From Owenia fusiformis (lineage: Eukaryota > Annelida > Polychaeta > Sabellida > Oweniidae): a stretch of DNA of 64,000 nt. Positions within the stretch are counted from its first letter, which is position 1. The number at the start of each line of letters is the position of its first letter. Where the stretch lies: positions 26,396,822 through 26,460,821 of the forward strand of contig CAIIXF020000008.1 of NCBI GenBank assembly GCA_903813345.2, read 5' to 3'. Made by a program: the position numbers and the translations under genes. Under the pieces are notes generated by a model, which saw only the letters and a program-made list of their open reading frames with translations, was not told the DNA's origin and made no database searches. Below, in pieces: positions 22,491-57,188 of this stretch.

Positions 22491-22496
22491 GGAAGA

Positions 22497-30954: not shown

Positions 30955-33008
30955 CTTCGTCTGGAAGGTAAGCTCTTTTTAATCGTGGCAACTGTCTTCT
31001 AGATACGTTTTGGAATTTTTCCAGTCCGTTTCAGTCCAAGAATTTTTTTTCTTATTGCTAAAATATTTAAGGCAGTGGGCTAAATGCATTCACAAGGCAT
31101 GATGGTATATGAAATTTCAGCCAACCAGAACATAGGATTTAAAATATTTTGCATTCTACTGTATAGACTGGCTATCTTTAGATTCAGTGAAATTGATTAC
31201 CCTCGTCAACTGTACAAAGTATTCTGCAATGGGTTAAAAGGGGTTAAGCACATGACTTGGTGCGGTGAATTGTATACTATGCACCCCGCTATAGCATGAC
31301 GGTTACGCCACCTCTGAATACGAGGTTGGACGGCTACGTTCACTGATTTATCTAATAGAATGGCCGCGATGGAACAGAAAACTAAGGTTGGTGCATTATT
31401 TTCTACTACTGTGTATCAATGAAAGGATGAACGATTTATGTAAGCATTGCATTCGGTGCATTTAGTAATGTATATTTTGAACGTAAGCTAGTCTGCAAAT
31501 TGATGCCCGGGGATAACATGAAATAAGCGAAAAACTGTTGAGTTTGAAATTCAAAACTACACAAAATTAAGTAATTTGTTTATTACCTCGGGGTATATAG
31601 ATGTAACCTACATACGATCATAAAAAGCCAATTGAGCATTGGAAACCACCTTATATGTTCTACTCAAGCCATAATAATGTATTTTGAATTTGCGGTTACG
31701 CCAAAAATTGATGGACGGTTACGCAAACCTCGTTCAAATATGTATCCCCGATTCATTGTTATTAATTTTGTCATATTTATCAGTATTTGATGCTAATTCT
31801 TCTTTTGCCTCTTTTTTTTACCTTTCATTGGTTTCATAAATAAAGCAAGACACAATTTTTTCCTTGCCCTATAGAGGCTCAAACAAGAGCGTCTCTTGCG
31901 GGTCCTGAAAACAAATATAAGCATCGACCCCCCCCCCCCCGGCTAGCTACGGGGCCTGCAAAACATACGTGAAGTTATAAATCCACAATTTATTTCGTCA
32001 GAGATCAGCGCCTTCTGTCAGTCATTTCTATTGCTAGTTTGAAAACAGAGAGATACGTGCAAATGTCGACAATAATGATAGGGTAATTTTAACCAGTGAT
32101 ACGTTCGGTTTTTGACACGCTAAACGACTGGAATTAAAAGAACGAATGTTCGTTTTTAATATGATAATGTGGTGTGTCGTGAGTTTTGAATCACCACGAT
32201 TATATTCTAGGGAAAAACACGGTTTGCTCAAATTTCTCTGATTTCTCTCTGTAGCCAAAGTAACAGTTGTTTACAACACGTGTGACTCCACAAATGTGAA
32301 GAAAGCTGAGAATTAAAAACCATCGGTACGTTTCTTTATAGTTTAGAAGCTGAATCACATTTTTGTGCGTCAATCAAAAAACTAAAAAAGTAAAAAATAC
32401 GAGGCGAGCAAAGGAAAAGCACATTCTATAATATTATTTGAAAAATACATTCATATTTTAGCTACAAAAAAATGAAAATTTTAGATAAATACGTTTTGTG
32501 TGCACTAGCCCTCATTGATGAGATCACCGGAACTTGGTGCACCTGTATGATATCTGAGTCTCAGATGATATGCAATTCAAACTCACATGGAAGTTGTAAG
32601 AGTTTACAATAGACACCGTAAGAATTTGTTAGAAACACTGACAGCCGAACACCAACTGCCAACCGCCATCTCCAAAAAATTGGAGACCATAATAGTATTT
32701 CACTCCACGATATAATACTTCATTTTATTATATTTTAGCTGAGACTTTTGTTAGTCTCAGATTTCAGGTATAGCATAGATGATGCTGATTGTACACACAT
32801 CCCAATTCAATAGACACACACCTACATCATATACATGTATTGTCTTGGTACGCTTTTAAGCATTATGTTCAATACCCTAAACCTTCTTTATCCGTTGTTG
32901 CACTGCAATACTGCCTTTTGTCACTTGGTACAGTATTTTCACTTTGTACTAATTATCACTTGATATTTGTCACTTATATTTTAAAACCAGATCTTTTACA
33001 TATAATTT
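30955..33008. other. 5' flank of POP7, no other gene seen
   Basis: A poly-C run lies near 31,927. A CACGTG lies near 32,278 about 750 bp upstream of POP7, and a partial GTCACCAC-family MITE at about 32,626-32,694. An untranslated first exon of POP7 may lie here, but I could not place it. Confidence 0.4.
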
Positions 33009-33020
33009 ATGTTCCAGAAT

Positions 33021-33452
33021 ATGTCTTCGGAGAAGATAGTCACATCCCCTGCAGCAGATTCTACAGTTGCGCCACCTGGTGTTGAAGCTATTGGACCAGA
33101 GGAGTACACTGTTAGGAAAAGACTCCCTAAGCAAATGCCAAGGAGGACAAATGATATCTATGTTACAAAAAAGACCAATTTCAATTGTCAGTTGAAGCGT
33201 TGTAAAAACCTATTAGATACTGGGAAGCATTGTGAAATATATATTCATGGATTAGGCAATGCTGTGAATAGAGCTGTCAATCTGGCTCTAAAGCTTAAAG
33301 CTGAAAGTGCAGGAACTTTGGACACTGCAGTGAACACATCAACTGTTGAACTAATAGATGACCTTGAACCTAACACTGATGATGTAGAACCAGGAACACA
33401 AACGAGGAACAGTTCAGCTGTTCATATAAAAGTATTTTCTGTAACTAAGTAA
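33021..33452 (+). CDS. POP7: Ribonuclease P/MRP protein subunit p20 (POP7)
   Basis: A 143-residue Alba-like subunit of nuclear RNase P and RNase MRP, which mature tRNA 5' ends and process pre-rRNA; in the family it pairs with POP6/p25 on the RNA P3 domain. Recognised from several conserved stretches: EYTVRKRLPKQMPRR then NDIYV (residues about 28-48), the Alba-type EIYIHGLGNAVNRAVNLAL (about 73-91), NTSTVELIDDLEP (about 105-117) and SSAVHIKVFSVTK at the C terminus. Human POP7 is 140 residues, so length fits. The coding sequence is one exon. I start at ATG 33,021 because TTTATGTTCCAG just upstream looks like a 3' splice site, placing the more upstream in-frame ATG (33,009) in an intron. A 5' untranslated exon is therefore likely. 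The gene lies tail-to-tail with LRPPRC. Confidence 0.95.
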   Translation: MSSEKIVTSPAADSTVAPPGVEAIGPEEYTVRKRLPKQMPRRTNDIYVTKKTNFNCQLKRCKNLLDTGKHCEIYIHGLGNAVNRAVNLALKLKAESAGTLDTAVNTSTVELIDDLEPNTDDVEPGTQTRNSSAVHIKVFSVTK

Positions 33453-37109: not shown

Positions 37110-40100
37110 CTAGCTAGCATGTGCTTCTTGACTAGAAGCAGCAGGTTCTACAGTCCAAGGAACCGTTTGATTATTTGATGTTAAAAAGTCTCCAAGTTTG
37201 TTTCTTATTTCTTTAGAGAATGAACCCTCTGTTACGTCACATTCTAGAGCTTCTTTCACTGTGTCGACTGCCTCAGAGAGCTGGTTCTTTGTAACTGCAA
37301 TACAATATAACCGACAATTATGTAAATTGGTACAATGAAAAATCACTGCAATTTTAGCACTTCAAAATGGCCTACTCTTCAAAATAAAACAGTTAAATAA
37401 AAAAAGATGTGGACAAATATGAATATACATACATACTGACATGTATTAACATCCTATGTATTAATGCAAGCTGAAGAAAATTCATAAACTCTTATTGATA
37501 AAGCTAGGCAAAAATTCAAAAAATGTCAAAAAATAAAAATATATTGAAATGTCACATCAGCTTTACATATGCACATGTAGCAATATGATTTAACAGAACT
37601 TATATACATACTCTGAGCTTTCACCAAACAGACAAATACACTCTCCGTAGCAGCCTTATCTTTACTGAATTTTATAATTGCTTTCACTCGCTGTAAGTCC
37701 TCTACCTGCAACAAAACAAGAACTCCATTTTATAGCAATTATTTAATAAGTACCACATGGTTTATGTTTGTTTTCTTAATGAGTCTTGATTAAACTGTTA
37801 ATCTAACATGATAGTAAACGTATATCAACAGAATGTTTCATGTTCTTGTCATATGGTCTCCCAAAAATTGGTTAATAACTTCTTATAATAAGCAAAGTCG
37901 CATTCGTAATGATCAAACATCAAATCATAATTTTCATTTTAAGTGGGGCCAGAGGGTGATTGCCCCACAATACAATTACTTAAGTTTTTATCGTAAATTG
38001 TTACATTGGTAATTCCATAATAACTTAAAACATGTCTACTTACACTGGTTTTCACATTCTCTATTACTTGCATTGGTTGCACAGACTCGGCACATTTAGG
38101 ATATTTCTAAAAAAGTAAGCACATGTTCATCAATTCTTGATGAATGTCCCCGAAACTGTATATAGTACAGTAATGACAACAGCCTTATTTTACCAAAAAT
38201 ACTCATGTAATTGCTTGCAATTATTCTATGCTTTCTATAATGTATAACTGCCTTTCAGCAAACAACATGGCACACCTCAGTTACACTTTGGCTTAAGCCT
38301 GGAGCCTGTCAGTTTGTAATATTTACATTAACAAAAAATACATAATCTTTGTTATCTATATTGAGACTTAATAATGCTTATATATTGGATTATATTGTAA
38401 GTAAAGGACAGAAGGAAGGGGTACTGAATTATTGCTAGTTTGGTTAGAGACATATAAAACATGTCCCTGGCCATTTAGATGTGTCTGGGTTGGCATAATA
38501 TGATAGATTTGCCTATAACTTGGTAACACTCGCGACAACTACCACTTACATTCAGTAATTCCTCAGCTACATTATATTCCTTTTTGTACATGTGGTATTT
38601 GCATAATGCTGATACAGCACTTTCTGAGCCATGGTCTGCGAATTCCTTCAACATGTCACATACTGTAAAAACAGAAAAAACACCCATGACTGTGACCATC
38701 ATAATTGCAATCAACAATGGAAACCTTCTGGTTGACTGACTAATAGGCATATTTGGATCTAGAAATGAATGAATGGAAAGGGATCTTTGCACTTTCACCG
38801 AAAAAGCTCTAGATCAATTCGTCAAATAAGCCAAGAATCACAATATTTTTGAAAAATGGTCAACAGTTCACTGAAGTTCCTCATGTTATATCTTAATTTC
38901 AATTTTGAACAGAAAGCAAACTATTGTGACTCCATCTTTTCATTTGGAGAACATCCATTATTTAAATTTAATATTGAATGCACCATTGGGCCATCATGTA
39001 CTTGTTCTATACACAATCTGACAATTGCTTTCGCAACACCTACCTTTAGAGAATGTGTCTGTACCCTCTAACTTGAATAGAAATGCCATGCTAACTTTGG
39101 GATTTTCATCTATACTTTTTGAAAGGACAGCCACTGAAGAGTCTCCCTTATTTCTAAAAATGAGATGCAGAGTTGTATATATCTCATACAATTTTAATTA
39201 TCAACAAGGGATTAACATGCAAAATGTCACCACTAGCCTTTAGTTACAAATGCCAAGCGCCGAACACAAACCACTAACCGCTGAACACCATTCACCAAAT
39301 ACTATCCACAAAATGTTGGAAACTGTAACAATATGTCATCACTTGTGGTGGTGACTTAAAAATGCAGATTATATTATGTTATTGAGAAATGCTTCTCTTA
39401 CCCTCCATGTTAGGTTTTCATGTTTTGTCTGCTTGGCTGAGAGCACTTTAGAACATAAGACACCTTCATGATGTTTTGCTTTATATAGCCTATATGTTAT
39501 TAACAAAGTTGCAAGAATAATTTATGTTAGACACGGCTGCAAGGATTACTTACACGGTTACAAGGATTACTTACATGGTTACAAGGATTACTTATAAGGC
39601 TGCAAGAATTACTTACATGGCTGCAAGGATTACTTACATGGCTGCAAGGATTACTTACATGGCTGCAAGAATGATGCTTTCAAAAACCTTTGCATTGTTT
39701 CCTGGTAAAGTTTGGCTGATTTTACACAGTAATTCCATGTCTCGGAGTTCAACAAGATATTCACAAAGTCGTCCAAGTTCTACAAATCATACAATGATAC
39801 ATGTAATACTAAAACGCATATCTAAATCCTGTGGTTTAATCTAAATGAAGATTGAGATGAAGATGACAACCAAGAATAGCATTCCAATAAAACCAAATTA
39901 CTCTTACCTGCTTTATAACGTTGAAGAAAAGCAGCTTTTGCGATATCAGCCAAGACATTATATTCCTTTCCTACATTTGCCCTGAAATAAAACATAAAAT
40001 TATGTCATCATAGACAAGTGTACAAAGAGGAACTAAAGATGACATAAAAATCTTGTGAGAGATAAGACACGTAAATGTTCAAGAAGGAACTAACATATCA

Positions 40101-43100
40101 GTAACTATTAAGCAGACAAATTTTCATTATTACATTAGTCTTTGGCACAATGTCCTTGGCACAATGTCTCAGATAGATTTGCGATTATATTTATGTTACC
40201 AAGATTGTCTTTTCATCAAATCAATTTTTGAGTGAATACTATCCCAATCCCAGTACGATTTTTTTCCTGAGGCAATACAATTTTTCTGAGTGAATATGAT
40301 TTTAAGAGGGACAATACAACAAATTATAAGACAATCTGTTATCCTTACTCGAGTATTTCAATAACTTTGTTCATGCCTAATGTGTTGTAGGCTGCAAGTA
40401 GATCTCTGTCTAGGTCATTCAACATATTCTCATCCATACTTAAAACAACAGGTTTACGGGGTACAGGCTCACGTCTTGCTGGAGTAGGCTGAAGACAAGA
40501 TCAATTATGAGATTGGTCAGGTAATCACAAATGAATCCCTATATTCTATGTATGACTACATTTATAACTGATTTTAGATATACAATCAAAAGATTAAGGT
40601 CTATGTTGCTGTCTACAGTACATGCCAGGGTGATAAAACAATGAGTATGAGTGAGTACATACCATTGCAACATGAGCAAGGAAAGCTGGTTAAGAAACTC
40701 TATCTGCTCACCTTTTCAACTGGCACAGGGCCTGTTTGCTGTCGCTGTCCAGTAGCCTCAACACCAGGAGTGAAGCCAGTCGGTAGCTGCTGGTCACCAT
40801 GGCTTGACTTAACATTTGGCACTTCAAATGGCACATCCATGTCAGCAGACTTGAGAACAGATGCCAGGTAACGAAGAGTTCGTGGTCTGGGGAGGATATT
40901 CTCTTCATCATACATGGTGTACACATCTAGGGCTTTCTCAGGTTGCTTGGCAACACCTGTCAACATTCACTTTAAAATGTTATATCAAACAAACAATTGG
41001 TGTTGTCCCAGAAGATATATTTTAGGAACACATCTGGAAATATTTTGTACTATCTCATACAGCCTCATGACTCGACTCTCCACCTTATATTTTGTTCTGT
41101 CACTTGTTTGATCTCGCATTGTTTGAAAATGATTTGATTTTATGCATGTTTACATAAATACCTTGAAAATAATATTTCATTTTATTTGAAATGATAAGCC
41201 ATGAACATATCCCAAAGCAACCAAATCTAATCTAGTGCTCCACCCCTCAGTATTAAGGCAAACAATTAAAGTATCTGAAGATCTAGTGGTTTGTCCTTCA
41301 ATACTAAAAAAAGAACTTACCATATCCCTTGATCAGCATAAACAACATATTGTCTCGGTCAACACCATAGAAATCTTTAGTTATGTCCACTAGATTGCGC
41401 AAATGTGTGACCTGAAATCAAAAAATAAAAAGAGTATAAATTTACAGTAAATTCCTAGACTAATAGGTAAGAAAACTAAAAAACAGAAGTATTGAGATAC
41501 TGGTGGACCTTTGGCTGTTTGATAACATAACCCCATATCACTTTAAGACAAAATCTAGTTTTATTGGACACAATATAATATGGATTATAATGTGCCATTA
41601 ACTGTGCCATTGATTAAATTTTGGCAAGATACATTAAGTTTAGGTTGGTCCTATCAAACATAGAGAAAAGTATGAAGATCTAGAATTGTTCCTACCTCAC
41701 GGTTGTCAATGTATCTGTCACAAGCACTAAGATGAAGGTCTGTTATGGCTCTCAGCCCTGGAGTCTGAAACAATTAGTAAATAATATATAATATATACAA
41801 GCAATTACATGCAAAATGTCACAACTTGCCATTTATTACAAACACCAAACAACAAACATCAAACACCAACTGCCAAATGCTGCCACTGTCCACAAAAAGA
41901 TTGGAAACCATAACACTTGTGGTGGTGACATAATAACAAAGCAGTATGTGAAAAATATGCAACAGGAATATTTTTGGTTTTGTCTACATCTAAAACTTAA
42001 GTAATTGCTCATAGTGATACTTCAGTCCTCATAGTCATTTAGTACATGTAAAGATGCATTTATATGTAATGTAGTTGCAATTCATGAACACTTACATAAG
42101 AAGTACAACACAATACTAGTAATTACTAATTACACACATACACGTCGTATCTAACACACCATGATACATTTACAACTTAAAATAATAAGTGGATTGTAGT
42201 TTACCTCCATGACTTTCCTGGCCTGATTCATGAGACCACATTCAACAAAACATATGGTAAGTTGGTTCAGTACAGCCATCTCTCCAAACAACTTTATACA
42301 CATGTCCATCACTGAAACACAAAACATATGGTAAGTTGGTTCAGTACAGCCATCTCTCCAAACAACTTTATACACATGTCCATCACTGAAACACAAAACA
42401 TATGGTAAGTTGGTTCAGTACAGCCATCTCTCCAAACAACTTTATACACATGTCCATCACTGAAACACAAAACATATGGTAAGGTGGTTCAGTACAGCCA
42501 TCTCTCCAAACAACTTTATACACATGTCCATCACTGAAACACAAGGCATTAACATGCGAAATATCACCACCATTTGTTACAGATGCCAACCACCGATCAC
42601 CAACCGCTGTCACAAAAAATGGAGACCACAACAATATGTAAACAAAACTTTTTGGTGGTGACATAAAACAAAACATAGATTTTGCTTGGCATGAATGCAG
42701 GGTGATGTCATTTTGACTCATGAGACCTGTTCGAAATGAACAAAAATGACACTACTGTATTGTTCTTGATAACTGGTATATTTTCTTCAGTTCTTGCATA
42801 TCTTCAAAAACATTTATCATTGATTTATCAATATCATATTATAAATATTATACTTTTTAATTTCTTGTAAACACAGAGGAGTTAACAGAAAATTACTAAC
42901 CTTTTTGTAGTTCATCTGATTTGTTCTGTTTTATGAGAAAGTTGAAGACATCTGGGTACAAAGGAAGCTTGTTGAAGTTGCGGACACAATACTCTGTTGC
43001 TGTTACTAGACCCTCTGCATCAGCCCTGGGAGAATGGAAGACACATTTAGATATTATCTATAAAATAACACTTGTTGAAGTTGCGCACGCAATACTCTGT

Positions 43101-46100
43101 TGCTGTTACTAGACCCTCTGCATCAGCCCTGGGAGAATGGAAGGCACATTTAGATATTATCTATAAAATAACACTTGTTGAAGTTGCGCACGCAATACTC
43201 TGTAGCTGTTACTAGACCCTCTGCATCAGCCCTGGGAGAATGGAAGGCACATTTAGATATTATCTATAAAATAACACTTGTTGAAGTTGCGCACGCAATA
43301 CTCTGTAGCTGTTACTAGACCCTCTGCATCAGCCCTGGGAGAATGGAAGGCACATTTAGATATTATCTATAAAATAACACTTGTTGAAGTTGCGCACGCA
43401 ATACTGTTGCTGTTACTAGACCCTCTGCATCAGCCCTGGGAGAATGGAAGAAACATTTAGATATTATCTATAAAATAAGACTTGCTGAAGTTGTGCACGC
43501 AATACTCTGTTGCTGTTACTAGACCCTCTGCATCAGCCCTAGGAGAATAGAAGAAACATTTAAATATTATCTATAAAATAAGACTTGCTGAAGTTGTGCA
43601 CGCAATACTCTGTTGCTGTTACTAGACCCTCTGCATCAGCCCTGGGAGAATGGAAGACACATTTAGATATTATCTATAAAATAACACTTGTTGAAGTTGC
43701 GCACGCAATACTCTGTTGCTGTTACTAGACCCTCTGCATCAGCCCTGGGAGAATAGAAGAAACATTTAAATATTATCTATAAAATAACACTTGTTGAAGT
43801 TGTGCACGCAATACTGTTGCTGTTACTAGACCCTCTGCATCAGCCCTGGGAGAATGGAAGAAACATTTACATATTATCTATAAAATAACGCTTGTTGAAG
43901 TTGAGGACACAATACTCTGTTGCTGTTACTAGACCCTCTGCATCAGCCCTGGGAGAATGGAAGAAACATTTACATATTATCTATAAAATAACACTTGTTG
44001 AAGTTGAGGACACAATACTCTGTTGCTGTTACTAGACCCTCTGCATCAGCCCTGGGAGAATGGAAGACACATTTAGATATTATCTATAAAATAAGACTTG
44101 TTGAGGTTGCGCACGCAATACTCTGTTGCTGTTACTAGACCCTCTGCATCAGCCCTGGGAGAATGGAAGGCACATTTAGATATTATCTATAAAATAACAC
44201 TTGTTGAAGTTGCGCACGCAATACTCTGTAGCTGTTACTAGACCCTCTGCATCAGCCCTGGGAGAATGGAAGGCACATTTAGATATTATCTATAAAATAA
44301 CACTTGTTGAAGTTGCGCACGCAATACTCTGTAGCTGTTACTAGACCCTCTGCATCAGCCCTGGGAGAATGGAAGGCACATTTAGATATTATCTATAAAA
44401 TAAGACTTGTTGAGGTTGCGCACGCAATACTCTGTTGCTGTTACTAGACCCTCTGCATCAGCCCTGGGAGAATGGAAGAAACATTTACATATTATCTATA
44501 AAATAAGACTTGTTGAAGTTGCGCACGCAATACTCTGTTGCTGTTACTAGACCCTCTGCATCAGCCCTGGGAGAATGGAAGACACATTTAGATATTATCT
44601 ATAAAATAAGACTTGTTGAAGTTGCGCACGCAATACTCTGTTGCTGTTACTAGACCCTCTGCATCAGCCCTGGGAGAATGGAAGACACATTTAGATATTA
44701 TCTATAAAATAAGACTTGTTGAAGTTGCGCACGCAATACTCTGTTGCTGTTACTAGACCCTCTGCATCAGCCCTGGGAGAATGGAAGAAACATTTACATA
44801 TTATCTATAAAATAAGACTTGAAGTTGCGCACGCAATACTCTGTTGCTGTTACTAGACCCTCTGCATCAGCCCTGGGAGAATGGAAGACACATTTAGATA
44901 TTATCTATAAAATAAGACTTGCTGAAGTTGTGCACGCAATACTCTGTTGCTGTTACTAGACCCTCTGCATCAGCCCTGGGAGAATGGAAGACACATTTAG
45001 ATATTATCTATAAAATAAGACTTGTTGAGGTTGCGCACGCAATACTCTGTTGCTGTTACTAGACCCTCTGCATCAGCCCTGGGAGAATGGAAGACACATT
45101 TAGATATTATCTATAAAATAAGACTTGCTGAAGTTGTGCACGCAATACTCTGTTGCTGTTACTAGACCCTCTGCATCAGCCCTGGGTAAATGGAAGACAC
45201 ATTTAGATAGGGGTGAGACGACAACCCGATGAGTCGAGGACTCGCGGGTTTGGGGCTTCGAGTCAAGTCGAATCGAGTCGAAGTTGATGAATCGAATCAT
45301 TTTCGAGTTGACAAAAAAATTCGAAAAAATAAAAAAAATCTGAAAAATACTGTCAATATGCATGTTTTTACTCGATATTGCGTTGAATATATAAGTTTCA
45401 ATGACTTGGATATGCTTGTATTAAATTATTATATTGTATGTACACATAAATGAAAGAATATATGTAATAAAATCAGAATAAACTTACGACGAATTGTGTT
45501 TGTTTATATTTCCGGCTTTCCACCATTGATGCATTAAAAATACGAACGGTCAAAAGCGATGTTGTTCGCACTTCGCGCGACTCGAAACGGATTCGAAACT
45601 CGAATCGTCATTTTCTGACTCGAATCGGATTTGACTCGAATCGGATTTTTTCGACTCGTCTCACCCCTACATTTAGATATTATCTATAAAATAAGACTTG
45701 AAGTTGCGCACACAATACTCTGTTGCTGTTACTAGACCCTCTGCATCAGCCCTGGGAGAATGGAAGACACATTTAGATATTATCTATAAAATAACACTTG
45801 TTGAAGTTGCGCACGCAATACTCTGTTGCTGTTACTAGACCCTCTGCATCAGCCCTGGGAGAATGGAAGACACATTTAGATATTATCTATAAAATAACAC
45901 TTGTTGAAGTTGAGGACACAATACTCTGTTGCTGTTACTAGACCCTCTGCATCAGCCCTGGGAGAATGGAATAAACATTTAAATATTATCTATAAAATAA
46001 CACTTTCCCAGGGGTTTCACTAGAATTTCTACAACAGGCTAAAAATGAAAACAACAGGGAAAATTAATATGGAAATCATAAAAGAGTGATATTGATATGG

Positions 46101-49100
46101 AGAACTGAATTCAACAATGTTTTTCTCTTAAACCAATCATTGAAAACATTCTGTAAAAAAACACAGTATTTTATGTAATGTTGACTGATTGACAACAATT
46201 TAATGCGAAAATTATTTAGAAATATTTTATATAACTGTTTTTTTTTTTTAGTGCAATTGTTTTTGCTCCTTTCTACGAATTCTTGAATATGAAATAAAAT
46301 GTCTTTCCGAACCTTGTTGGAACAAAATAGCATATACAACATGTTTTTACCTCTCAATATTATAGTTATACAAAGGAATTTTTGGTTGATCTTAAAAAAG
46401 CATTAAAAAAATTAAAACAAACCCCCCCCCAAAATTTCCTTTGTACTGGTACAATTGAGAGACCTAAACATGTTGTGTTTATGTCGTTTTGTTCCAATGA
46501 GGTTCGAAAAGATGTTTCATTTCACTCTGGAAACATGATACCAAGAACAAAACAAGTGTTTGATGTGTTTTCTAAAACAATATAGATGAAAGATTATATG
46601 TATTTTTCAAATTATATTGTTACCATTCAAAAGATGTCCATTAAATTGACGGTGTGTTAAATTTTTAGATTTTTTTCATGACTGATTTAAGAGAAACGTG
46701 TGTTCAAAAAGGTCTCCATATCGATACCACTCCTTTAACAAGGAAAAGTTGAAAAGGCCCTAAAAAGATCCGGTTGATTTTGGGAAAACAACCGGTGAAA
46801 ATCGCCTGTTGCATGCTGCTAATGAAACCCCTGCTTTCCATAAACTGGAAGGATTTTAGATGAATAATTTATAAGAATGTTGTTTTACGTTTCATGAATC
46901 TGGTTTTTACCTCAGATAATTTGCTCTGGATAGTGAATTTAATATCTTAACAATGCATAGGAGTCCTCCTTAGTCAATGAAAGACCTACCTCTCTATAGC
47001 TGACTTTATGTAAGCCTCAAGCAGGTTGTATGAACCTTTCTTTATAAAGCCTCCTTTGAACAACGCCTCAAGCATCTCTGCTCCTATCTTTGCATCTTTG
47101 CATGCATTTATCAGGTCAACACATGGCCGTTCCAGTTTGTGGCCCTCCCCAAAGGCAGAATCATGCAGATATGCACCATGTGTGTTTGTATACTGCTGGA
47201 GAGCATCTAGAGCGTCTGAAAATCAATGACAAGTATTGTTGATCATTCTGCAGTGGATATTAATGTTGATGTACATACAATTACCTTTTCAAGTCACACA
47301 CAAAAAACTACAATTTAAAACCAACTGTCACCATTGAAGTTGACAAATGAGACACTAATGATATTTTAAATATTCATTTTTACTGATTCTGCCGACGTCA
47401 TTTGTAATTTTAGTAAAGTCATAATACTGCAGAAATGTAGAATCATCATCTATAGTGCATTTACATTTATCAAAATCAAGTACATGTGGTTCTGAAATTT
47501 CACAAACATGGAATTTTTCAGTGATTTCATCAAAGCAAATAATATATTGCATCCCCAAGTGTGAGATGGTCTCAATAACATCAACATTCTTAGATAGGAA
47601 ATGAAAATATCTTCCAGTTTCAGCCCTCCTTCAATAGAAATGTTCCACCTCAAACTTGAGGATTGATTACTCTATAATTAATACAGCTTGTTTGATTGTT
47701 TGACATGTTTGCTTCTACCTACCTTGGACGAGATCATTCTTCACAAAGCATTTTGCCAAAGATATCGTCATGGATGTAAAAACGTTGTAATCTGGAAAAT
47801 CTGAGTACCTGAAGAAATAAAGAAACAAAATTTTAGTTGAAAAAGATGAATCCAAAGTAATCATCGTGGATGTAAAAGCATTGCATTTTGGAAGATCTGA
47901 GTACATGATGAGAAGATTTAAGTGTTGTTATGCAAAGTTATAACTGATACAACTTCAGTACTTACAACATGTCATTGTGTTTACGTGCCAGCTGTGGATC
48001 ATTCATGAAATTGGCTGCCATGAAAGCCATCTGTCTGTGCATCTCCCCATTCATTACAAACCCAGTTTCCTCAAACTCCTTCACTAATCCCATTGCTTCT
48101 TTGACTTTCTGTAATGAATGATATGTACAAGTGGGCTTAAACCAAAAAAGTGATTATTCAACAATAAAATTGGCAGCCATTTTGAAATTCTGCAGACACT
48201 TTTCCCTTAAACAGTGTAGAGAGCATGGACTCATTCAAATTGAGTTGATTAAAACATGCCACAAATATGACAGAGACAAATTAGTTGATACTTGAAACGT
48301 GGTTGACTTATGTCCTAGAATCTGTGCATTAACTGATGAAATGAGCAATATATTCGACTATCTCAGCTTACCCCTTCCTTGGTGTAATGAATAAAGAGAT
48401 ATTTCCTGACAGAGATTTGATTCGCTTCAGGGTCGTCACGAAGGATTTCTAGCTCACTGGCAGTCTTCTGGTGATAGAGTATGTTTTTTCTATTCTGGGT
48501 TCCTTGTGGAAATTGATAGGCATATTCATCTAGGGCGCCAGCATCTATTGATGGTAGAACCTACAATTAAGGCACTTTTATGTTTAGTTCATGTTGTAAT
48601 ATATAACTAACATGTTCTACTTCACTGATCGTCCTAGTATTCAAATTTTACAAAACATTATGCCATCTTGCTAACTATTTGCTTGTCAAAACTACCCAGA
48701 TAATATGACCAAAATTAATATTATTTGCACCCATAATTAGAAAACATAATGACTGTAGTGAACTCACATTCATCAGATAAACTTTCAAACTACTAAAATA
48801 TTATTGTTATGTTATGTAAGGCTTCATCTGTTGCCGGGACTATAGTCATGGTACAAGATTTAGTGAGGCCCATGAGTGGTAAAAATAGTCTAAATTAATC
48901 AATTTCATAATTGTAAAATGTCACATGCATCTAGCCATCTTCTGTCATATTGTTCTGAACTAAACTGACTAGACAAAATCCAAGTCAGATACATCCTAAC
49001 AAAATTGAGTTAAGAGCATAATAGGGTAAACCTGACACAGCATGAACTGGTTTGAATAAAACATTGAATAGTGATGAACATTAAATATCAAAATAATATC

Positions 49101-52100
49101 TCTCATGAAGATGTTTACTATTTAGTAATGGAGTTTGAACATGAATCCTCTTAATGTACATGCTTACCTCTAAAATGTCATCAGTGACTTTATCTGAACT
49201 CTTCACATTACCCAGGTCCCCCCTGAAGACCTTCAGGTTATGATCAGCATACCATCTGACCACCTTGTGGATCGTGTCTGTATCACTCATGTACACTATC
49301 GTCTTCAAGAAGTCTCCACAAAGGAATATGTGGCCGTTTTGTTTGGGATTTGGCCAATTCTTGCTTATGTTGAGTAACTGAAAAGTTAATTTATGACTTA
49401 TTGAAATGGCTTATTTTTCATTAGGTTTAAGAAGCTCTTATGTCTTGATTTGTTACTGATCAATCTTCATCTTATTTTCTCTAAGTTACAATTAAAGCAT
49501 TTAATGAAAATAAAATCATTGGATGCTTATTTAAAACCATGTACCATAAAACAATTCCTTTTCATTTAATCGGGATTGTTCAACGTTGAACAGTGTAAGT
49601 GACAGCTTCACCAAGTCTTATAACAAAGAGTAACTAGGATCTAAACCTATTATTTTAAGAATCATAGCTACCTCAAGGACAGAGTCCAAGTCTGGGTTGG
49701 TCTTGTAAGCTTGGACAAAGTATGGCCTCAAGGCAGCTGACAGGAGTGCTGTAGGGGAAGATGTATCGGCACCTACAACATATTGTTTTATTTTATATAT
49801 ACAGGGCACTCTGCAATGCTTAACAAAATCACTCATATTTTCAAGGATATAAAAACAGTTTAGTTATCAAGATTTTCTAACTGGCCATATTTGACCTGAA
49901 TATATTTTTTCTGAAGTTTTAAAAGAGGATATTGAGACAGAAAATCTTACCTATTTCTACAGCTTTCTTGAAGTCGTTCATTTTTATAGCATCTATCACC
50001 ATGACACCCTTCACTATACCAGATCCTATCTGCACGGGCTGGAGAACAAATGTTTCAATACAATACATTAACCTTTGCTACTCACTCACCATTGGAAGAG
50101 ACAAAGTCATAGCTCAGAGTATAGCTCATCCAAAATGGTGGACAAAATTCATTACATATCGATAAACCTTTGATTTCAGCTAAACCAAGTAAAATTTCTA
50201 TTCTGAACATTTCGACATGCAAACTCATAAAGCTTATAAACTACAATGTATAAAGAAATGCTCATCCACCTCATTTCTTTAAAGTTGTTTACAAATAGCA
50301 AGATATTGGACATCCATTACTCCAGTAAGTTTCATCCTGATGTGGACCAATGAACCATGTTTTAGAAAACTACAGATTTTTTCACAGATATAGTACTTTT
50401 TTCTAGCTGATACTAATTATCAAATTATCTTTTTTTCAGAAAATTGTGAATACGGGCCTCTGATCACAATTAAATATGCATTTTATAGTAAATTACCAGT
50501 TTGTCTTGAATTTCACGAATTGTCTCTCCAATATTCGTCAGTGCTGGAATGACATACTCCTGCAGTGTGATAATCATCTCCTTATGCTCCACGTGCTTCA
50601 TACTCCAAGTAAACAAGTCATAAATCCCTAAACATAAAAAACACATTGTCAAGTGGAGTTTGATAATTTTTAAAAGGCATGTTGGATCATGTTAAAGTTT
50701 ATAGAAAATTATTGGGTCTAAAATGATTCCAAATGTCTTTGAAATTGCATTGGCATTTGAAATTGCATTTAAAATTGTTCATGCTGAATGTGAATATACA
50801 TTTATTTACCGAAAGTCACATGTACGAAGTCAAACAATCATGTTATTGAGTTTGCTAGTAACCTCCGATTTTTGAATATTACTTTAGGAATCATACCCTT
50901 TGCATCATTTCCCTTCTCTAAAGTCTTGTATATGGGCCACAAGTAATGTTCTCGAATCTCTATACCCTGTAAAAGATCATCACATTTAACAGATAAAAAT
51001 AAGGCATTAACATGGAAAATGTCACAACTTACCACTTGTTACAAATCTGGTGGTGACATAAGGAAATACAGGACATTATGAGAGGACTTTTTTTAAATAT
51101 TCTTGGCACAAAATGTTCAATGTACACAGGTTTAACTGTATATGGAATAATTAATATAACTATTACCTTCTTCTCAATAATGTCCATCATCTCTCGTGCT
51201 TTCTCTGAAACAGAATATGAGTTCATTCATCATTACGTTCACATTCTTGCACTCTTGTAATGATGTCGTTATAAATTCAGATATAATAGCATCAGTTCCC
51301 CATTCATAGATATTGAGGATAGAGCAGTGAACAACTTTAACATTCACGTTGCAGCAGTTATCAAGAACCGAGGAACACGGATTGAGCACATCATCCATTA
51401 ACCGGGCATGTCTGTTGATGCCACATAACTTCTGCAAGATTTAAGACTGGGTGACATTTATGGTACCCACAAAAACTTTAGACCATTCACTAAAATATGT
51501 GAGAATATAAGCCCATTAATGTGGGTTGCGGGTAATACAGGAGATATAGCTCCTAGCTAGTAGCAAGGGTTCACTTTTTTACCACCCTGTACCTCACCTA
51601 AAGCCTTGAAGCAAGACTAATCATCTCAATACACATGTAGTTCATTAAACAAATTAGTGCCTCCTGTACATATTTGAAATGATTTAAAGCAGCATATACA
51701 GTATTTCAAGCATACAATAATAACTATTTTTAAAAACTTTTGAGTTATACATAATCATAGTCATTGTTATAAGACATCTTTATCTAAAAGGACAATAAGC
51801 TGCTACAGGAGGACTCACAAATCATCAGTACAGCTCTTCAATGCTATTATTATGGAGGTAGTAGGGGAACTGTATAATTTCATGTTATTATAGAGGTTTC
51901 ACACAACAGTTGATAGCTAAAATGTATCCACAACCGAATCTCATTCTAAGTGAATTGCTACACAAAAATCTGGTGAATATGTTACTGATTTTAGATACAT
52001 TGAGCTTTGTGAGAACTAGAAACATATGTATTAAAAATGTGATCATACCTATGTTCTTTGCATTGAGATACCAGAACAAGCCATCCAGAAGGCCTTGCTC

Positions 52101-55100
52101 CATAGTCTTGTTCCTGTACATCTCTGGTAGGAATTCAATCATCCGCTCTACAGGCTGTATTAAGGCAATTAACATCATTTAACATATAAAGTGTAAGATA
52201 CAATATATGCATGGCAATATATAGCACAGGCGCAGCAGTAACAAAATACAATCTACAGGTAAAATACTGTGTTGTTTATTGATGAAAATATATGAATAGT
52301 CCACTCTTTCAAGATATCTCGACTTACAGCATTATTTCTGCAAAGAGCTTTGAGGAAGAATGCTCCCACAGCCAGATCTCTGGTGTTAAGAGTGTCCTCC
52401 CCCATAGTCTTGTACACCTCAAAGGCAACATCATAATATCCCTTGGCAACAAGTTGTAGAATGGCACTGATGACATCATGGTTGTATCCCACTGATTTGT
52501 TCACTAGATCTATAATCTAAAAAAACACACAATAAACTACTCAAAGCAGTTTCGATGAGGCATTAACATGCAAAAATCACCTGCCATTTGTTACAGATGC
52601 TGAATGATGAATGTTGAACACCAACTGCCAAACACCAATGCCAACAGCCTAACACTGTCCACAAAAAAGTTGGAGACGTCGATATGTCATATGTGGTGAT
52701 ATGTGGTGGTGACGTAAGATATTAAGATGTTTACATTTTTAATAGTATAACAATAATGTATTCCACTTTTTGGACAATTCATCGTCAACATGCCTCCAAT
52801 TTCACAGTTAAGTCTCATCTCAATAACAATGTTTCACAAGGCATTAACATGCAAAATGTCACCACCTTCTATTTTTTACAGATGCCAAATTCCAAACGCT
52901 GACCGCCAGAAGCCGAACACCATCAACAAAAGAGTTGGAGACTATAACAATATGTAACCACTTGATCAGAAAAGTAATCTAAATCTACTCACAGTTTGTA
53001 CATGCTCTGGGTGTCCAACTTCTGTCAACCGTATTATCACATCCATATAGACACGTCCATATAAGGTAACTTCACTCTGCTCTGCCGCTGCAAATGTTTC
53101 TTTAATTGCATCTATGTTGTTATTAGATGCATTGCCAAGTAACAAGGCAGAAAAGGTGTCAGCGCCGGGCTCTACTCCAGACTCTGACATCATCTTAAAA
53201 GTATTTTCTGCTCCATCAATGTCCCTGAAGTGAAGAGAATTATAAAACTATGAAAGATTTCATTCTGGTAAACACTATTTCTATGGACCTATATTAAATT
53301 GTTACACCATAGATGTATATCTGCGTATATATATCCCTTGGGCAGATATATTATATTGGCCTCGGGATAATCCCAATATCCTGAACCTCATATAGGATAA
53401 TCTCTATATCTACCCGGTGGTGAAAATATAGGTTTTTACAAACCTGCTTTATGTACCTGTAACAAGTCCAAGTATGGAAATTTATTTTATCTTTTTCCGA
53501 CACAGGTTTTTCTACTTTAATATAATATTATGTATATTGTGTATAAATGAAATAAATGGGATATAGAAGCCAGAAAAAAAAGAAGTCCAAGTATGGAATA
53601 AACATGTATACATACCCAGCCTTGAAGTGTGCAGTGATGAGTGCATTGAAGACAGGTTCTCCTATTGGCATATCTTCCTTCTTCATCAACTCAAGTATGT
53701 TCCTGAAAGTATTTACAGATAAAAAGGTAATGAACATCATTGTGTTTTCTAATTTAAATATGTGTGTCACCACCTGCGATTTGTTATAGATGCTGCAAGA
53801 CTTTGTTAAAGGTACCAAGAATTTATTACAGACACCAACTGCCAAACGCTGAACACCAACTGCCAAACACCAACTGCCATCCACAAAAAAGTGAAAAACA
53901 TACAGTATGTAGTTTTTACGCTTACATGGCTCCCTGTATGTCTCCTTCCTCAGCGAATCGCTCAACTAGACGTAGATATGTAACTCTATTTGCCTTCAGA
54001 CCTGACTCTTCAAGTTCAGCCAGTAAGGTGTCAGGCTTGAACAGATGACCATTCTGGTTATACATGGCCATCAGCGAGTTGTAGTGAGCAGTTGTCATTT
54101 TAACTCCTGAAATGTATCAATTCACATGTGTATTGACTGAATATTATCAATTTTTTGGATGGAATGCTTTGATAGCTGATTAGACTAAAGGAGAATCTCT
54201 CCAGTTGTTTTTATCAAATCACATGAGGAATAACGTTTGTGTTTTGTTTCCATTATTTTAACCTGTCTCAGTAATTTTGATGAAATTCCTGAACAAAAAA
54301 GAGTAGTATGCATGTTACTTTGCCTAAAAGTCCAAATCACGACCACGCCCAGTGATCGGAAAAACATGACAGGGGGTGTGCAGCCAATTTCTACTAGAAA
54401 ATTCAACAGATCTGGAGAATTCATTTTTTCAAGAGAATGATTACTATTGAATTGCTTCAATGAACAAATGCACATTATTTTAGCAATTAAAACTTTGTCT
54501 TAAAAAATATATATTCCAGATTTGTTGAATTTTCTTGCAGAAATCGCCTACTCCCCCATCCATCCCGTTTTCCAATCACTGGGCGTGACTTCTGTGATCA
54601 AACATTACCTTGTTCTTTAAAGAACTGCCACATTGTGTTCAACTGTTGCGTACGTGCCTCACCCGTCAACTCAGGCATCTTAGAGCCCATACACCGCAGT
54701 AATAACAGAGCCTGTTCACTGGTAGCATTGCCTACAATATAAGGGTTATCCATGTTTTCAAATATCCATGTAAGGATGGACAATTTGTAAAATACTTGGC
54801 TTACAAGGGAAGGTACTTTTAACAAAGTAGCAGGCATCTTAAAATTTAACAAGAATAACACTACCGTATATGTATTGTTGGACCTAAAACTGAGTTTTTA
54901 TTACTTTTTTGAAAATATAAAAATCATCTCTCTATATGAACTACTTAACTGGCTTCAGGAATGACTTTTTGAGCATTTAAAGTCAATATCTTACCATGGT
55001 GTTTGAGCAAGCCAATTATTTCTGACACATCTATACTTGAGACTCGGCCAGTTCTACGAACAATGCGGTCGAGGTTTGATAGTTTTCCGTCTGCCTCCTT

Positions 55101-57188
55101 CGAGGGGTAGGTCTTTGCATTTCTGGCATATCTAGGGGCAGTATCAAGGTTGCTGCTGCAATATCTACAAAAGCACAATCATAGATACTACAGAACATAA
55201 GTAAGTAGCAAAAAGTTAAATTACAGAAATGTAATAATGGAACAGCCTTAAACAGGAAGAGTCTACCCTCTCCAAAAGAGCAGTAAGAAAATCAGAGCTT
55301 GCATTAAGCTCAGAAGATGTCCCAAAAAAATTAAAAAAGTGAGTCCTGACCAAAAAGTGTGTTTCCTAATAATAGCTTATTATGGGCTATCAAAGTTCAA
55401 CTAAAGGACAGAGAGGCAATGTTGTCCATGTAGGTAACTGTTGGATACTCAATGCAGGGCTTCCTTTGTCCAAAATGGACGATATATTGCTTCCCTATAC
55501 TCTATAAAATAAAATTAGTGCAATAAGACATAAATCTGTACATCCCTTTATAACACAGACCTATTGCAGGGCTACATGTAGTTCAAGGTGATCCCCCAAC
55601 TTCCCCTTGGCTTACTGAACAAAAGCCAGCTGAGGGTAAGTTCAAATATACCGTTTTGTGTAGTGGTTTTTTCCAACTTCCAGCCGGCATGCTGGGATAA
55701 GTAACAGTATTTAGGAAGATAATTGAATGTAATTTGCCTTTTTCATGACTTCTGGTGACAATAAGTCCTATTCATTGTGTAGTTTGCAGTTAAAATGGAG
55801 TAATATCAAATCTCACGCACACCATTTTTATTTTTTTGCATTTGATTTTACATGCGTATGGGCATTGTCGTTAAAAGATCACATGACTATTCATATTTAG
55901 CTAACGCAAGTTATTTTGTAGCAAATCTTTACTTTCGAAAGTCACAAGATCTCGCAAGACCTTAAAATGGCTGCAATCTAATTTCAAAAGTTTTGCTGTC
56001 TAATAGAACATTGATTTACGACAACTACAGACTGTTGAAGGAACAAAATAGGGTAACAACAAATAAATTATGTATTGATTCAAATATATAGGGTATTATA
56101 AACGCTACTCAGCACAGCGTTTAGTCAAAATGGGCTCGATTTTTTCGCTTCAAGAATTTTCAATCCAGCTTCTCAGAGCTGACTTCTGTCAGCTCGGTAG
56201 AGTAACACTTGGCCAACTCTGGGAAATAGCAGCTTATGCAACACAAAAACAACAATATGATGTACAGTGGGGATCATAAAGAATTGCAAAAGCTATGAAA
56301 ATTACATGCTGTCGCACATGTAATAAATTCTTACCTCAGTGTATTCAGTGCTCTATTTTCTCCGTCTGAGTAAGTCCAAATATAGTGGAATTTGTGTCCC
56401 TAATGACAAATAAGAACTTCAAAAAATGAAGTGGATATTCACATGTTATGCCGACTCTTCAAATGTTGAGGTGATTTTGTCGCCCGATTGCGCCGGAATG
56501 GAGGATTGGCTCCCAGAATGCAACATGACACGTGCCAGCTTTCAAAATGCTGTTCCGCCATTTTGAAACCTGTCATGAGTAAATACGGTAACTGATGTTG
56601 CATTCTGGGAGTCAACCGTCCTTGGATAACAAACATGGCGATTCATGAAAACATTCATTCGATTTGGTAGGGATTTATCCATTATTTGCAGGTATGAAGC
56701 TTTGGATTCATTTATTGTGCTATTTTAGTGAACGGGAATTATTTTTCTACCGCTTGGGAGAGTTTGAGACACGAAACTTGGAAATTAGCTCATTGTGACA
56801 ACTTGTGAACATTGAGTTTTATTTTTGTCCCCCACTTTAAGTAAATTTGAAAATGACATAACACCATATTATTTTTGAATGTGGCACAATATTGCTGTCG
56901 CCGAGCTTTAGGGCCGCATAGAAATAAGAGTCTAGGGCTTACGTGTTAAGATTTTAGTGGGCAAAAGTAAGTTCAAGTTGAACCTTGAAAATTATGAAAA
57001 AAATTCTCAGAAAAACTAAAAGCAAATTATTACTCTTACCTTTTGGAGAAACTAGTCGTTATCCTACTATCATTTTGTTTTAATTTTATTTGTCTAGCTG
57101 ATTTCACAGTATTAGCATGTATGTACTTGTAATTGTGTAGATATTTCACAAAAACCGGCGTGCGTGTGAATTTAAAGAGCGCAGCCAT
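37110..57188 (-). CDS. LRPPRC: Leucine-rich PPR motif-containing protein, mitochondrial (LRPPRC)
   Basis: Mitochondrial RNA-binding PPR protein; in vertebrates it works with SLIRP to stabilise and polyadenylate mitochondrial mRNAs and is needed for cytochrome oxidase. I resolved 31 coding exons with consistent phases (4,056 nt, 1,351 residues; human 1,394): 57040-57188, 54995-55164, 54609-54731, 53926-54106, 53616-53702, 52993-53224, 52328-52516, 52049-52154, 51167-51204, 50897-50966, 50497-50627, 49951-50038, 49672-49772, 49168-49377, 48372-48560, 47966-48108, 47723-47808, 46990-47215, 42901-43025, 42205-42311, 41696-41764, 41321-41411, 40712-40956, 40349-40488, 39908-39981, 39659-39779, 39044-39153, 38550-38662, 38044-38106, 37612-37705, 37110-37294. 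Exon 1 (MAALFKFTRTPVF...) is basic and hydrophobic like a mitochondrial presequence. Diagnostic stretches are DRIVRRTGRVSSIDVSEII, a PPR pair near residues 185-270 (VFNALITAHFKAGDIDGAE), and LPRPRTLRYLASVLKSADMD (human [20 protein letters not shown]). The exon 1 to exon 2 join is the least certain. Confidence 0.93.
39210..39358 (+). mobile_element. GTCACCAC-family MITE in an LRPPRC intron
   Basis: Full-length copy, antisense to LRPPRC. GGGATTAACATGCAAAATGT at the left, AAACTGTAACAATATGTCAT in the body, and the terminal hairpin CACTTGTGGTGGTGAC at the right. Confidence 0.75.
39535..39670 (-). repeat. 21-bp array of the LRPPRC exon 26 donor site
   Basis: Six 21-bp units at the 3' end of exon 26. 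In transcript orientation each reads approximately ATGTAAGTAATCCTTGCAGCC, containing a consensus donor (GTAAGT) and an acceptor-like CCTTGCAG. The first junction, next to the exon, is the one that keeps the reading frame. Extending to a later donor would read GCC ATG TAA, an immediate stop. Confidence 0.9.
41804..41936 (+). mobile_element. GTCACCAC-family MITE in an LRPPRC intron
   Basis: Carries the family body (ACATGCAAAATGTCACAAC, ATTGGAAACCATAACAC) and the right end TTGTGGTGGTGACATAA. Confidence 0.75.
42247..42545 (-). repeat. 75-bp amplification of the exon 20 acceptor region
   Basis: Four nearly identical 75-bp units. The lowest-coordinate unit is the 5' part of exon 20 (42,205-42,311); the other three lie upstream in intron 19. 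Each carries TGTTTCAG|TGATGGACATG, so each has an acceptor and the first 60 or so bases of the exon. Reading from an upstream acceptor through the junction gives ...TGT TTT GTG TTT CAG TGA, a stop. Confidence 0.93.
42543..42668 (+). mobile_element. GTCACCAC-family MITE in an LRPPRC intron
   Basis: Begins GGCATTAACATGCGAAATAT, ends TTTTTGGTGGTGACATAA. It abuts the 75-bp array directly. Confidence 0.75.
43026..46005 (-). repeat. 103-bp array derived from the LRPPRC exon 19 acceptor region
   Basis: About 24 copies of a 103-bp unit fill much of intron 18, next to exon 19 (42,901-43,025). In transcript orientation each unit has the intron end (CTTCCATTCTCCCAG), the acceptor, and the first roughly 65 exon bases (GCTGATGCAGAGGGTCTAGT onward to AACTTCAACAAG). 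It then jumps to TGTTATTTTATAGATAATAT and the next unit. Translation of a unit starts ADAEGLVTATEYCVRNFNK and hits a stop within about 8 codons of the jump. The array is interrupted at 45,208-45,669 by a transposon. Several units are 99-101 bp. Confidence 0.95.
45208..45669. mobile_element. Non-autonomous hAT-like element (462 bp), 8-bp TSD
   Basis: Starts TAGGGGTGAGACGA and ends TCGTCTCACCCCTA. It is flanked by CATTTAGA at 45,200-45,207 and 45,670-45,677, which is one duplicated octamer of the 103-bp unit. The 8-bp duplication and YAGGGGTG ends are hAT hallmarks. Internally rich in GACTCGAATCG-type subterminal repeats, with no transposase. Its insertion postdates the array. Confidence 0.9.
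47822..47900 (-). pseudogene. Partial duplicate of LRPPRC exon 17 start
   Basis: Just upstream of exon 17 (47,723-47,808), a diverged copy encodes YSDLPKCNAFTSTMITL, next to the true exon's YSDFPDYNVFTSMTISL. The bases before its GTACTCAG are AT, not AG, so the copy has no usable acceptor at the equivalent position and looks like a dead tandem duplicate. Confidence 0.7.
51001..51063 (+). mobile_element. GTCACCAC-family MITE, short copy
   Basis: Left end GGCATTAACATGGAAAATGT joined almost directly to the right end TGGTGGTGACATAA; the body is deleted. Confidence 0.65.
52558..52713 (+). mobile_element. GTCACCAC-family MITE in an LRPPRC intron
   Basis: Begins GGCATTAACATGCAAAAATC, contains GCCATTTGTTACAGATGC, ends TGTGGTGGTGACGTAA. 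Confidence 0.7.
52838..52968 (+). mobile_element. GTCACCAC-family MITE, right end decayed
   Basis: Left end GGCATTAACATGCAAAATGT and body GAGTTGGAGACTATAACAAT are intact; the terminal hairpin is missing. It abuts exon 6. Confidence 0.65.
53763..53908 (+). mobile_element. GTCACCAC-family MITE, decayed
   Basis: GTGTCACCACCTGCGATTTG at the left and several CACCAACTGCCAAAC repeats; the right end is lost. Confidence 0.6.
56500..56640. promoter_or_regulatory. Hairpin with paired ZNF143-like and YY1-like sites (LRPPRC intron 1)
   Basis: TCCCAGAATGC (56,511-56,521) and its reverse complement GCATTCTGGGA (56,600-56,610) sit in the arms of a 24-27 bp inverted repeat. TCCCAGAATGC is the core of the ZNF143/THAP11 promoter motif. 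Between or beside them are CACGTG (56,529-56,534), a minus-strand AAATGGCGGAAC (about 56,551-56,562) and a plus-strand ACATGGCGA (from 56,634). This motif set is typical of housekeeping promoters, so it may be an alternative start for LRPPRC or an unrecognised bidirectional promoter. Confidence 0.45.

What the first reader, a model, noticed from the sequence alone, without database searches (positions are those of the whole stretch)
43026..46005. About 24 tandem copies of an exon's own 3' splice site inside an LRPPRC intron
The 103-bp array is not random satellite. Each unit reproduces the acceptor and the first ~65 coding bases of exon 19, repeated up to the real exon. The spliceosome must pick the last acceptor of about 25 near-identical ones. 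Reading through a unit meets an in-frame stop, so array-acceptor use should trigger decay and could tune LRPPRC output.
Basis: partly seen in the sequence, partly recalled or inferred. Interest (0 to 1): 0.85.

Follow-up and report, generated by a model that had tools for sequence, protein, structure and literature searches.

The report
Tandem copies of an exon's edge
A gene in what looks like an annelid worm carries 24 extra tandem copies of the edge of one of its exons, a repeat type ("mirage") already described in lancelets, so this is most likely a by-product of DNA duplication that splicing ignores, and not a switch built to control this gene.

Summary
The LRPPRC gene (31-exon model, open throughout) has 24 units of about 103 bp upstream of exon 19, each 46 nt of intron tail plus the first 57-58 nt of the exon. 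All 24 keep the acceptor AG, and splicing to any of them gives a stop within 73-82 nt. The finding missed three things. (1) The same gene has two more such arrays: exon 20's acceptor (3 extra copies, 74 bp) and exon 26's donor (21-bp units). (2) In 17 myosin stretches of the same genome, 7 of 24 arrays straddle exon edges, 4 at donors and 3 at acceptors; in 9 dynein stretches, 1 of 19. (3) A 459-bp dispersed element sits inside the exon-19 array, which argues against an assembly artefact. This is the "mirage" minisatellite known from amphioxus. The genome is probably an annelid's, perhaps Owenia (mir-2 cluster, haemoglobin-linker domains), and not amphioxus. I found no earlier report outside cephalochordates in the papers I could search. 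A gene-specific tuning role is unsupported: the trait recurs in other genes, and published amphioxus data suggest normal splicing. Enrichment of arrays at exon edges is suggestive but was not replicated in the dynein sample.

The parts
43026..46003 (-). Exon-19 acceptor array: 24 units (100-103 bp where uncut), each 46 nt intron tail + 57-58 nt exon start (54-55 nt in four units); acceptors at 45957, 45854, 45751, 45181 ... 43128; interrupted by an inserted element
42901..43025 (-). LRPPRC exon 19 (125 nt), with the real acceptor as the 25th and last copy
   Evidence: the reading frame is open through the joined CDS
45210..45668 (-). 459-bp element with short inverted ends (AGGGGTGAGACGA / TCGTCTCACCCC), inserted in the array between units 3 and 4, with a direct repeat of about 10 bp (ATCTAAATGT) on both sides; 40 full-length places listed genome-wide, this one included
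46990..47215 (-). LRPPRC exon 18; donor of the 3,964-nt intron that holds the array
42312..42541 (-). Exon-20 acceptor array: 3 decoy acceptors (42533, 42459, 42385) before the real one at 42311; 74-bp units of about 8-9 nt intron + 65-66 nt exon
   Evidence: TRF 42245-42544, 4.1 copies, 99%
42205..42311 (-). LRPPRC exon 20; the 20 nt before its real acceptor are duplicated exon sequence plus 8-9 nt of intron
39531..39669 (-). Exon-26 donor array: 21-bp units CTTGCAGCCAT|gtaagtaatc, 6.6 copies; real donor at 39658, further GTAAGT at 39637, 39616, 39574, 39553; one unit between them has lost GT
39659..39779 (-). LRPPRC exon 26 (the first donor copy is the real one; use of any of the 4 later GTAAGT sites brings an in-frame stop)
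37110..57188 (-). LRPPRC coding region, 31 exons, 4056 nt
   Evidence: PDB relative 8any_A5

Best explanation
The array is a "mirage": a minisatellite that began when a DNA segment straddling the intron 18/exon 19 boundary was duplicated in tandem and then grew by further slippage or unequal exchange, including multi-unit blocks. By geometry, a tandem copy of an intron-exon edge leaves the intact exon at the last copy (acceptor arrays) or the first copy (donor arrays), and all other copies fall inside the intron. Exon definition most likely picks the outer copy, because only there does a complete exon with a partner splice site lie across about 125 nt; the decoys have no usable donor of their own. 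The decoys are therefore normally removed with the intron, and the array is nearly neutral and free to expand, contract and receive transposon insertions. Occasional leaky use would give transcripts with an early stop. Shown: anatomy, stops, presence in several genes, inserted element. Inferred: duplication mechanism, exon definition, near-neutrality.
For: The unit is exactly one boundary segment, and the intact exon is the last copy. Array blocks 12-14 and 22-24 differ at 2 of 309 bp, which points to block duplication. A dispersed element lies inside the array. The same geometry holds in the other two LRPPRC arrays, in 7 myosin arrays (4 donor-side, 3 acceptor-side; exons checked by Pfam) and in 1 dynein array. 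Donor-like sequences at the end of the 24 array units score -1.5 to -6.6, against 5.3 to 11.9 for 29 other donors of the gene (those 29 trained the matrix). Amphioxus mirages have the same anatomy at both 5' and 3' boundaries and are reported not to interfere with regular splicing (PMC3087553; PMC3902484).
Against: No RNA was examined, so actual splice choice is unknown. In IFI6, two downstream repeat units are used as donors (PMC4526556, passage, citing Turri 1995), so array sites are not always silent. 16 of 24 decoys score as high as or higher than the real acceptor on a small own-gene matrix, so site strength alone does not choose the right one.
Confidence: 0.78

Rival explanations
1. Regulatory decoy array: the 24 acceptors compete with the real one, divert a share of transcripts to decay and so set LRPPRC output, with array length as a tuning knob.
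For: 24 of 24 decoys keep AG and give a stop within 73-82 nt; at 23 of 24 the last 20 nt of intron differ from the real one at no more than 2 positions, and 16 of 24 score at least as high; a donor minisatellite with used repeat units exists in human IFI6.
Against: Arrays of the same kind sit on other exons and unrelated genes. 10 of 46 intronic and about 11 of 57 exonic unit positions vary, and 7 of the 10 intronic ones lie at -17 to -3, so the tract shows no extra constraint. AG retention in young, homogenised units says little.
Confidence: 0.12
2. Chained mini-exons: each unit is spliced as a 57-nt in-frame mini-exon using the GT at its end, giving a protein with repeats of 19 residues.
For: The exonic part up to the terminal GT is 57 nt (a multiple of 3) in most units (20 of 24, counting the one without GT).
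Against: Terminal GT sites score -1.5 or -3.9 where GT is kept, one unit has lost GT (-6.6), against at least 5.3 for 29 other donors; the introns would be only about 46 nt; four units have exonic parts of 54 or 55 nt, two of which (55 nt) would break the frame.
Confidence: 0.02
3. Assembly artefact: repeat units multiplied or collapsed by the assembler.
For: Tandem arrays are error-prone in assemblies; PMC3087553 reports an aberrantly assembled mirage in the lancelet draft (supplement legend).
Against: 20 of 23 uncut copies are distinct; a dispersed element interrupts the array; similar arrays recur in independent genes. The exact copy number may still be wrong.
Confidence: 0.05
4. Ordinary cluster of duplicated, mutually exclusive exons.
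For: Candidates for such clusters exist in this genome (myosin; dynein).
Against: In LRPPRC the units hold only the acceptor side or only the donor side; none is a complete exon with two good sites.
Confidence: 0.01

Closest known systems
Amphioxus "mirages" (Adh3, globins BflGb6 and BflGb9, TnC, PGBD5)
   Same: Minisatellite-like tandem copies of an intron-exon boundary, at 5' or 3' sides; many but not all copies keep AG or GT; units 10-160 bp (PMC3087553 and PMC3902484, passages).
   Different: Here the genome is probably an annelid's; up to 24 extra copies against 3 and 6 units in the two BflGb6 haplotypes; three arrays in one gene; polymorphism and RNA not examined.
IFI6 (6-16, G1P3) minisatellite
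   Same: A minisatellite supplying multiple splice sites (title of Turri 1995 as cited in PMC4526556).
   Different: Donors only; two downstream units are actually used to make mRNA variants. Turri 1995 itself was not opened.
Polyubiquitin UBC and dual-specific splice sites in tandem repeats (PMC10809524, passages)
   Same: Splice sites embedded in tandem repeats; proposed route to new introns.
   Different: Units are complete coding monomers delimited by AGGT sites that serve as donor or acceptor; here units are partial exon plus intron with one site type.

Membership tests
Amphioxus-type mirage | Tandem repeat unit spans an intron-exon boundary | tested here: met
   Exon 19, 20 and 26 arrays
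Amphioxus-type mirage | Authentic exon is continuous with the outermost copy | tested here: met
   Exon model with open frame
Amphioxus-type mirage | Many copies retain splice signals | tested here: met
   24 of 24 extra AG at exon 19; 3 of 3 at exon 20; 4 further GTAAGT at exon 26
Amphioxus-type mirage | Length instability or polymorphism | not testable with these tools
   One assembly only; block 12-14 / 22-24 near-identity suggests past change
Amphioxus-type mirage | Regular mRNA splicing undisturbed | not testable with these tools
   No RNA data
Amphioxus-type mirage | Found in cephalochordates (where it was described; not part of the structure) | tested here: not met
   Genome has a mir-2 cluster and domains of the annelid haemoglobin-linker family; that these are limited to protostomes and annelids is recalled. 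GFP searches were empty but uninformative
Poison exon | Cassette exon with its own acceptor and donor plus a stop | tested here: not met
   Acceptor and stop present; donor-like sites score below zero
Mutually exclusive exon cluster | Complete exon copies with both splice sites | tested here: not met
   Exon-19 units end after 57-58 nt of a 125-nt exon

The most novel reading that the evidence does not exclude
Some process in this genome makes or keeps tandem duplications preferentially at exon-intron boundaries, on both sides, in many genes. Mirages would then be a recurrent genome-wide mutation class in at least two distant animal groups and a continuing source of decoy splice sites and new introns. 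The exon-20 array shows exon sequence already placed as the region upstream of what must be the working acceptor.
Probability: 0.3. Interest if true: 0.7.

Novelty: new member of a known kind. Interest (0 to 1): 0.5.

Why it matters
It would move mirages from a lancelet curiosity to a trait also seen in a protostome, with an extreme case (25 acceptors) that tests how the spliceosome picks one site among near-identical ones when sequence strength cannot decide. The arrays are natural intermediates for models of intron gain by tandem duplication. A genome with many of them also warns that gene predictors may call false exons inside such arrays.

Tried and rejected
Taxon. I first recalled amphioxus from its mirages and genome size. 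A GFP family search and a GFP-type protein query found nothing (no positive control, so weak). COX1 found nothing and the rRNA search failed. A guanidino-kinase family search and PDB comparison were inconclusive. Mollusc haemocyanin gave nothing (no control rang). The mir-2 cluster (4 matches, 3 over the cut-off, one control bacterium rang below the cut-off; 3) and the annelid haemoglobin-linker domain (3 matches over the cut-off, E 5e-7 to 5e-4, no control rang) point to a protostome, probably an annelid. That mir-2 is limited to protostomes and the linker domain to annelids is recalled; in two papers that I checked for mir-2 (PMC3772069, PMC6957206; passages) the sentence shown does not name it. 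Owenia rests on 12 chromosome-scale scaffolds and 505.8 Mb in PMC9977687 (passages), against 498.3 Mb here and large contigs with numbers up to C12 among those seen; I did not check for large contigs beyond C12.

Enrichment at exon edges. Myosin: 7 of 24 arrays, 1.74 expected by random placement, P 5e-4, or 0.03 with the expectation doubled. Dynein: 1 of 19, 1.12 expected, P 0.70, so not replicated. Pooled with the two LRPPRC arrays that were not in the finding: 10 of 45, 3.1 expected, P 4e-4; expectation doubled, P 0.06. Left as suggestive. Arrays with period under 15, under 2.9 copies or under 75% match were dropped and overlapping rows merged. Classification was by my reading, and the myosin exons that I recognised this way were added to the homology segments before the test. 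Two of the eight counted cases are borderline: L012 5165-5300 holds only 4 nt of exon per unit, and L029 3304-3681 about 7-8 nt. The 17 myosin stretches were taken from the places before any repeat search, leaving out some very long genes and isolated hits. The 9 dynein stretches were chosen from about 18 gene places (my count) by number of matched exons, which can slightly favour duplicated exons.

Dropped candidates: a 60-bp two-copy repeat in L020 (no open frame); a 29-bp array with GTGAGT in L009 (no open frame by my reading); arrays near but not across acceptors (L010 5696, L012 5433, L030 6081). A guessed exon at 51431 broke the LRPPRC frame and was removed.

None listed a report of mirages outside cephalochordates; most listed papers were not opened. 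Two non-lancelet papers that hold the word mirage (PMC7710358, PMC9912274) use it for other things (passages). The original Adh3 paper is not held. Only CC-licensed papers are covered.
Full report
What is there. On the minus strand the window holds a complete LRPPRC gene model: 31 exons from 57188 to 37110, 4056 nt, one stop at the end. A 252-residue stretch matches LRPPRC in the PDB (8any_A5, E 1.4e-31). Intron 18 runs from the donor at 46990 to the acceptor at 43025. Upstream of exon 19 lie 24 copies of the exon's own edge: 46 nt of intron tail and 57-58 nt of exon. With the real site that makes 25 acceptors, all with AG. A 201-bp query matched the genome only at this locus (23 overlapping matches; only best candidates are scored).

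Composition of the array. The 23 uncut copies (22 array units and the real one) average 95.9% identity (minimum 91.3%), and 20 are distinct; units 3 and 4, cut by the insertion, were left out of these figures. Units 12-14 and 22-24 differ at only 2 of 309 bp, so blocks of units have been duplicated. Ten of 46 intronic and about eleven of 57 exonic positions vary, some of the latter through small deletions or the cut units; seven of the ten intronic ones lie between -17 and -3, so the polypyrimidine tract is not specially conserved. Between units 3 and 4 sits a 459-bp element flanked by a direct repeat of about 10 bp; 40 full-length places at 98-100% were listed genome-wide, this one included, which is a lower bound.

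Consequences for splicing. Splicing exon 18 to any of the 24 decoys meets an in-frame stop 73-82 nt into the unit (24 of 24). On a small matrix trained on 28 other acceptors of the gene, the real acceptor scores 2.9 and the decoys 0.3-4.6; 16 of 24 decoys equal or exceed the real one, while the training sites themselves score 5.8-16.3 (they are scored on their own matrix, so biased upward). Strength alone therefore cannot select the right site. The terminal donor-like sequences score -1.5 to -6.6 against 5.3-11.9 for 29 other donors (also training sites), so the units do not look like mini-exons. The likely selector is exon definition, which is inferred.

More of the same in this gene. Exon 20 has acceptors at 42533, 42459, 42385 and the real one at 42311 (74-bp units, 99% alike). 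All three decoys give a stop at 77 nt. Because each unit carries only 8-9 nt of intron, the sequence just upstream of the real acceptor is duplicated exon. Exon 26 has the mirror case: 21-bp units holding the donor CAT|gtaagt, the real one first at 39658 and four further GTAAGT at 39637, 39616, 39574 and 39553; use of any of the four brings an in-frame stop. In the gene span these three are the only arrays that pass the filter (the exon-19 array in two rows), apart from one inside the inserted element. The chance that a random unit of 103, 74 or 21 bp straddles a boundary is 0.278, 0.199 and 0.042; the first was the given finding, so only the other two count as independent.

More of the same in this genome. 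In 17 ten-kilobase stretches around myosin genes, taken before any repeat search, 24 arrays passed the filter. Seven of them straddle an exon edge: donor side L010 5813-6934, L012 5165-5300 (only 4 nt of exon per unit), L019 2290-2881, L022 5156-5321; acceptor side L012 9525-9915, L019 3019-4089, L019 5427-6523. As short peptides, five of the seven exons match the myosin head profile on their own (E 1.3e-12, 1.4e-9, 2.1e-5, 0.0028 and 0.019; two of them over Pfam's cut-off), and the two adjoining L019 exons do not alone but do when joined (E 1.6e-6). L019 has a donor array and an acceptor array in one intron. In 9 dynein stretches 1 of 19 arrays does so (L029 3304-3681, with about 7-8 nt of exon per unit). 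Myosin shows an excess (1.74 expected, P 5e-4); dynein does not (1.12 expected, P 0.70). Pooled with two LRPPRC arrays, 10 of 45 against 3.1 expected (P 4e-4; P 0.06 if the expectation is doubled to allow for unannotated exons). These tests assume uniform placement, and classification was by eye.

What it is. [quoted passage not shown] PMC3087553 (abstract and passages) describes them in globin genes, cites Adh3 and other loci, reports them at both 5' and 3' boundaries, with 6 and 3 units in two haplotypes of BflGb6, and says Adh3 data and RT-PCR suggest no interference with regular splicing. PMC3902484 (passages) adds PGBD5 and TnC. The original Adh3 paper is not held. The anatomy here meets every structural feature I could test; polymorphism and RNA could not be tested.

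Which animal. A mir-2 cluster and domains of the annelid haemoglobin-linker family (three matches over the cut-off in one cluster) point to an annelid; that these markers are so limited is recalled. Owenia fusiformis fits in size and chromosome number but is not proven. If so, mirages occur in two very distant animal groups. Seven literature searches that bear on the question listed no report outside cephalochordates, in a library limited to open licences.

How it most likely works. A duplication across the boundary, followed by slippage or unequal exchange, places all extra copies inside the intron and leaves the exon intact at the outer copy. Selection on the protein is blind to the copies as long as exon definition finds the complete exon. 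That makes them nearly neutral. The decoy-regulation idea remains possible but has no support beyond the presence of stops and acceptors. The human IFI6 minisatellite, where two repeat units are used as donors (PMC4526556, passage), shows that such arrays can be used, so RNA is the decisive test.

Noticed in passing
G000:C9:37986009-37994334: Twelve separate matches to the same part of the myosin head profile (about positions 18-84) within 8.3 kb: a large cluster of probably mutually exclusive exons in a myosin heavy chain gene.
   Followed up: no
L026 2563-2880, 3729-4031, 7075-7470 (gene orientation): Three tandem versions of the same roughly 100-residue dynein motor exon, each open and different in sequence; candidate mutually exclusive exons.
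   Followed up: partly
L030 1498-1814 (gene orientation): A two-copy, 140-bp duplication of a dynein exon end with its donor (DVEL|gtaagt), 96% alike: perhaps the first step of a mirage.
   Followed up: partly
L019 2290-4089: One myosin intron holds both a donor array (83 bp, 7.2 copies) and an acceptor array (91 bp, 11.8 copies).
   Followed up: partly
window 42540-42600 and several other LRPPRC introns: An interspersed repeat ending in ...tgacattttgcatgttaatgcctt recurs in LRPPRC introns; one copy ends right at the first acceptor of the exon-20 array.
   Followed up: no
window 22495-23738 and 58545-59406: Two further long minisatellites (50 bp x 25 and 36 bp x 23.7) outside LRPPRC, not linked here to any exon edge.
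   Followed up: no
G000:C1:48609719-48611518 and C10:18524507-18525148: Long uninterrupted frames of a mitochondrial-type creatine kinase, apparently retrocopies, two of them side by side on C1.
   Followed up: no
window 33006-33452 (+): Open frame matching Rpp20 (POP7), in one uninterrupted frame.
   Followed up: no
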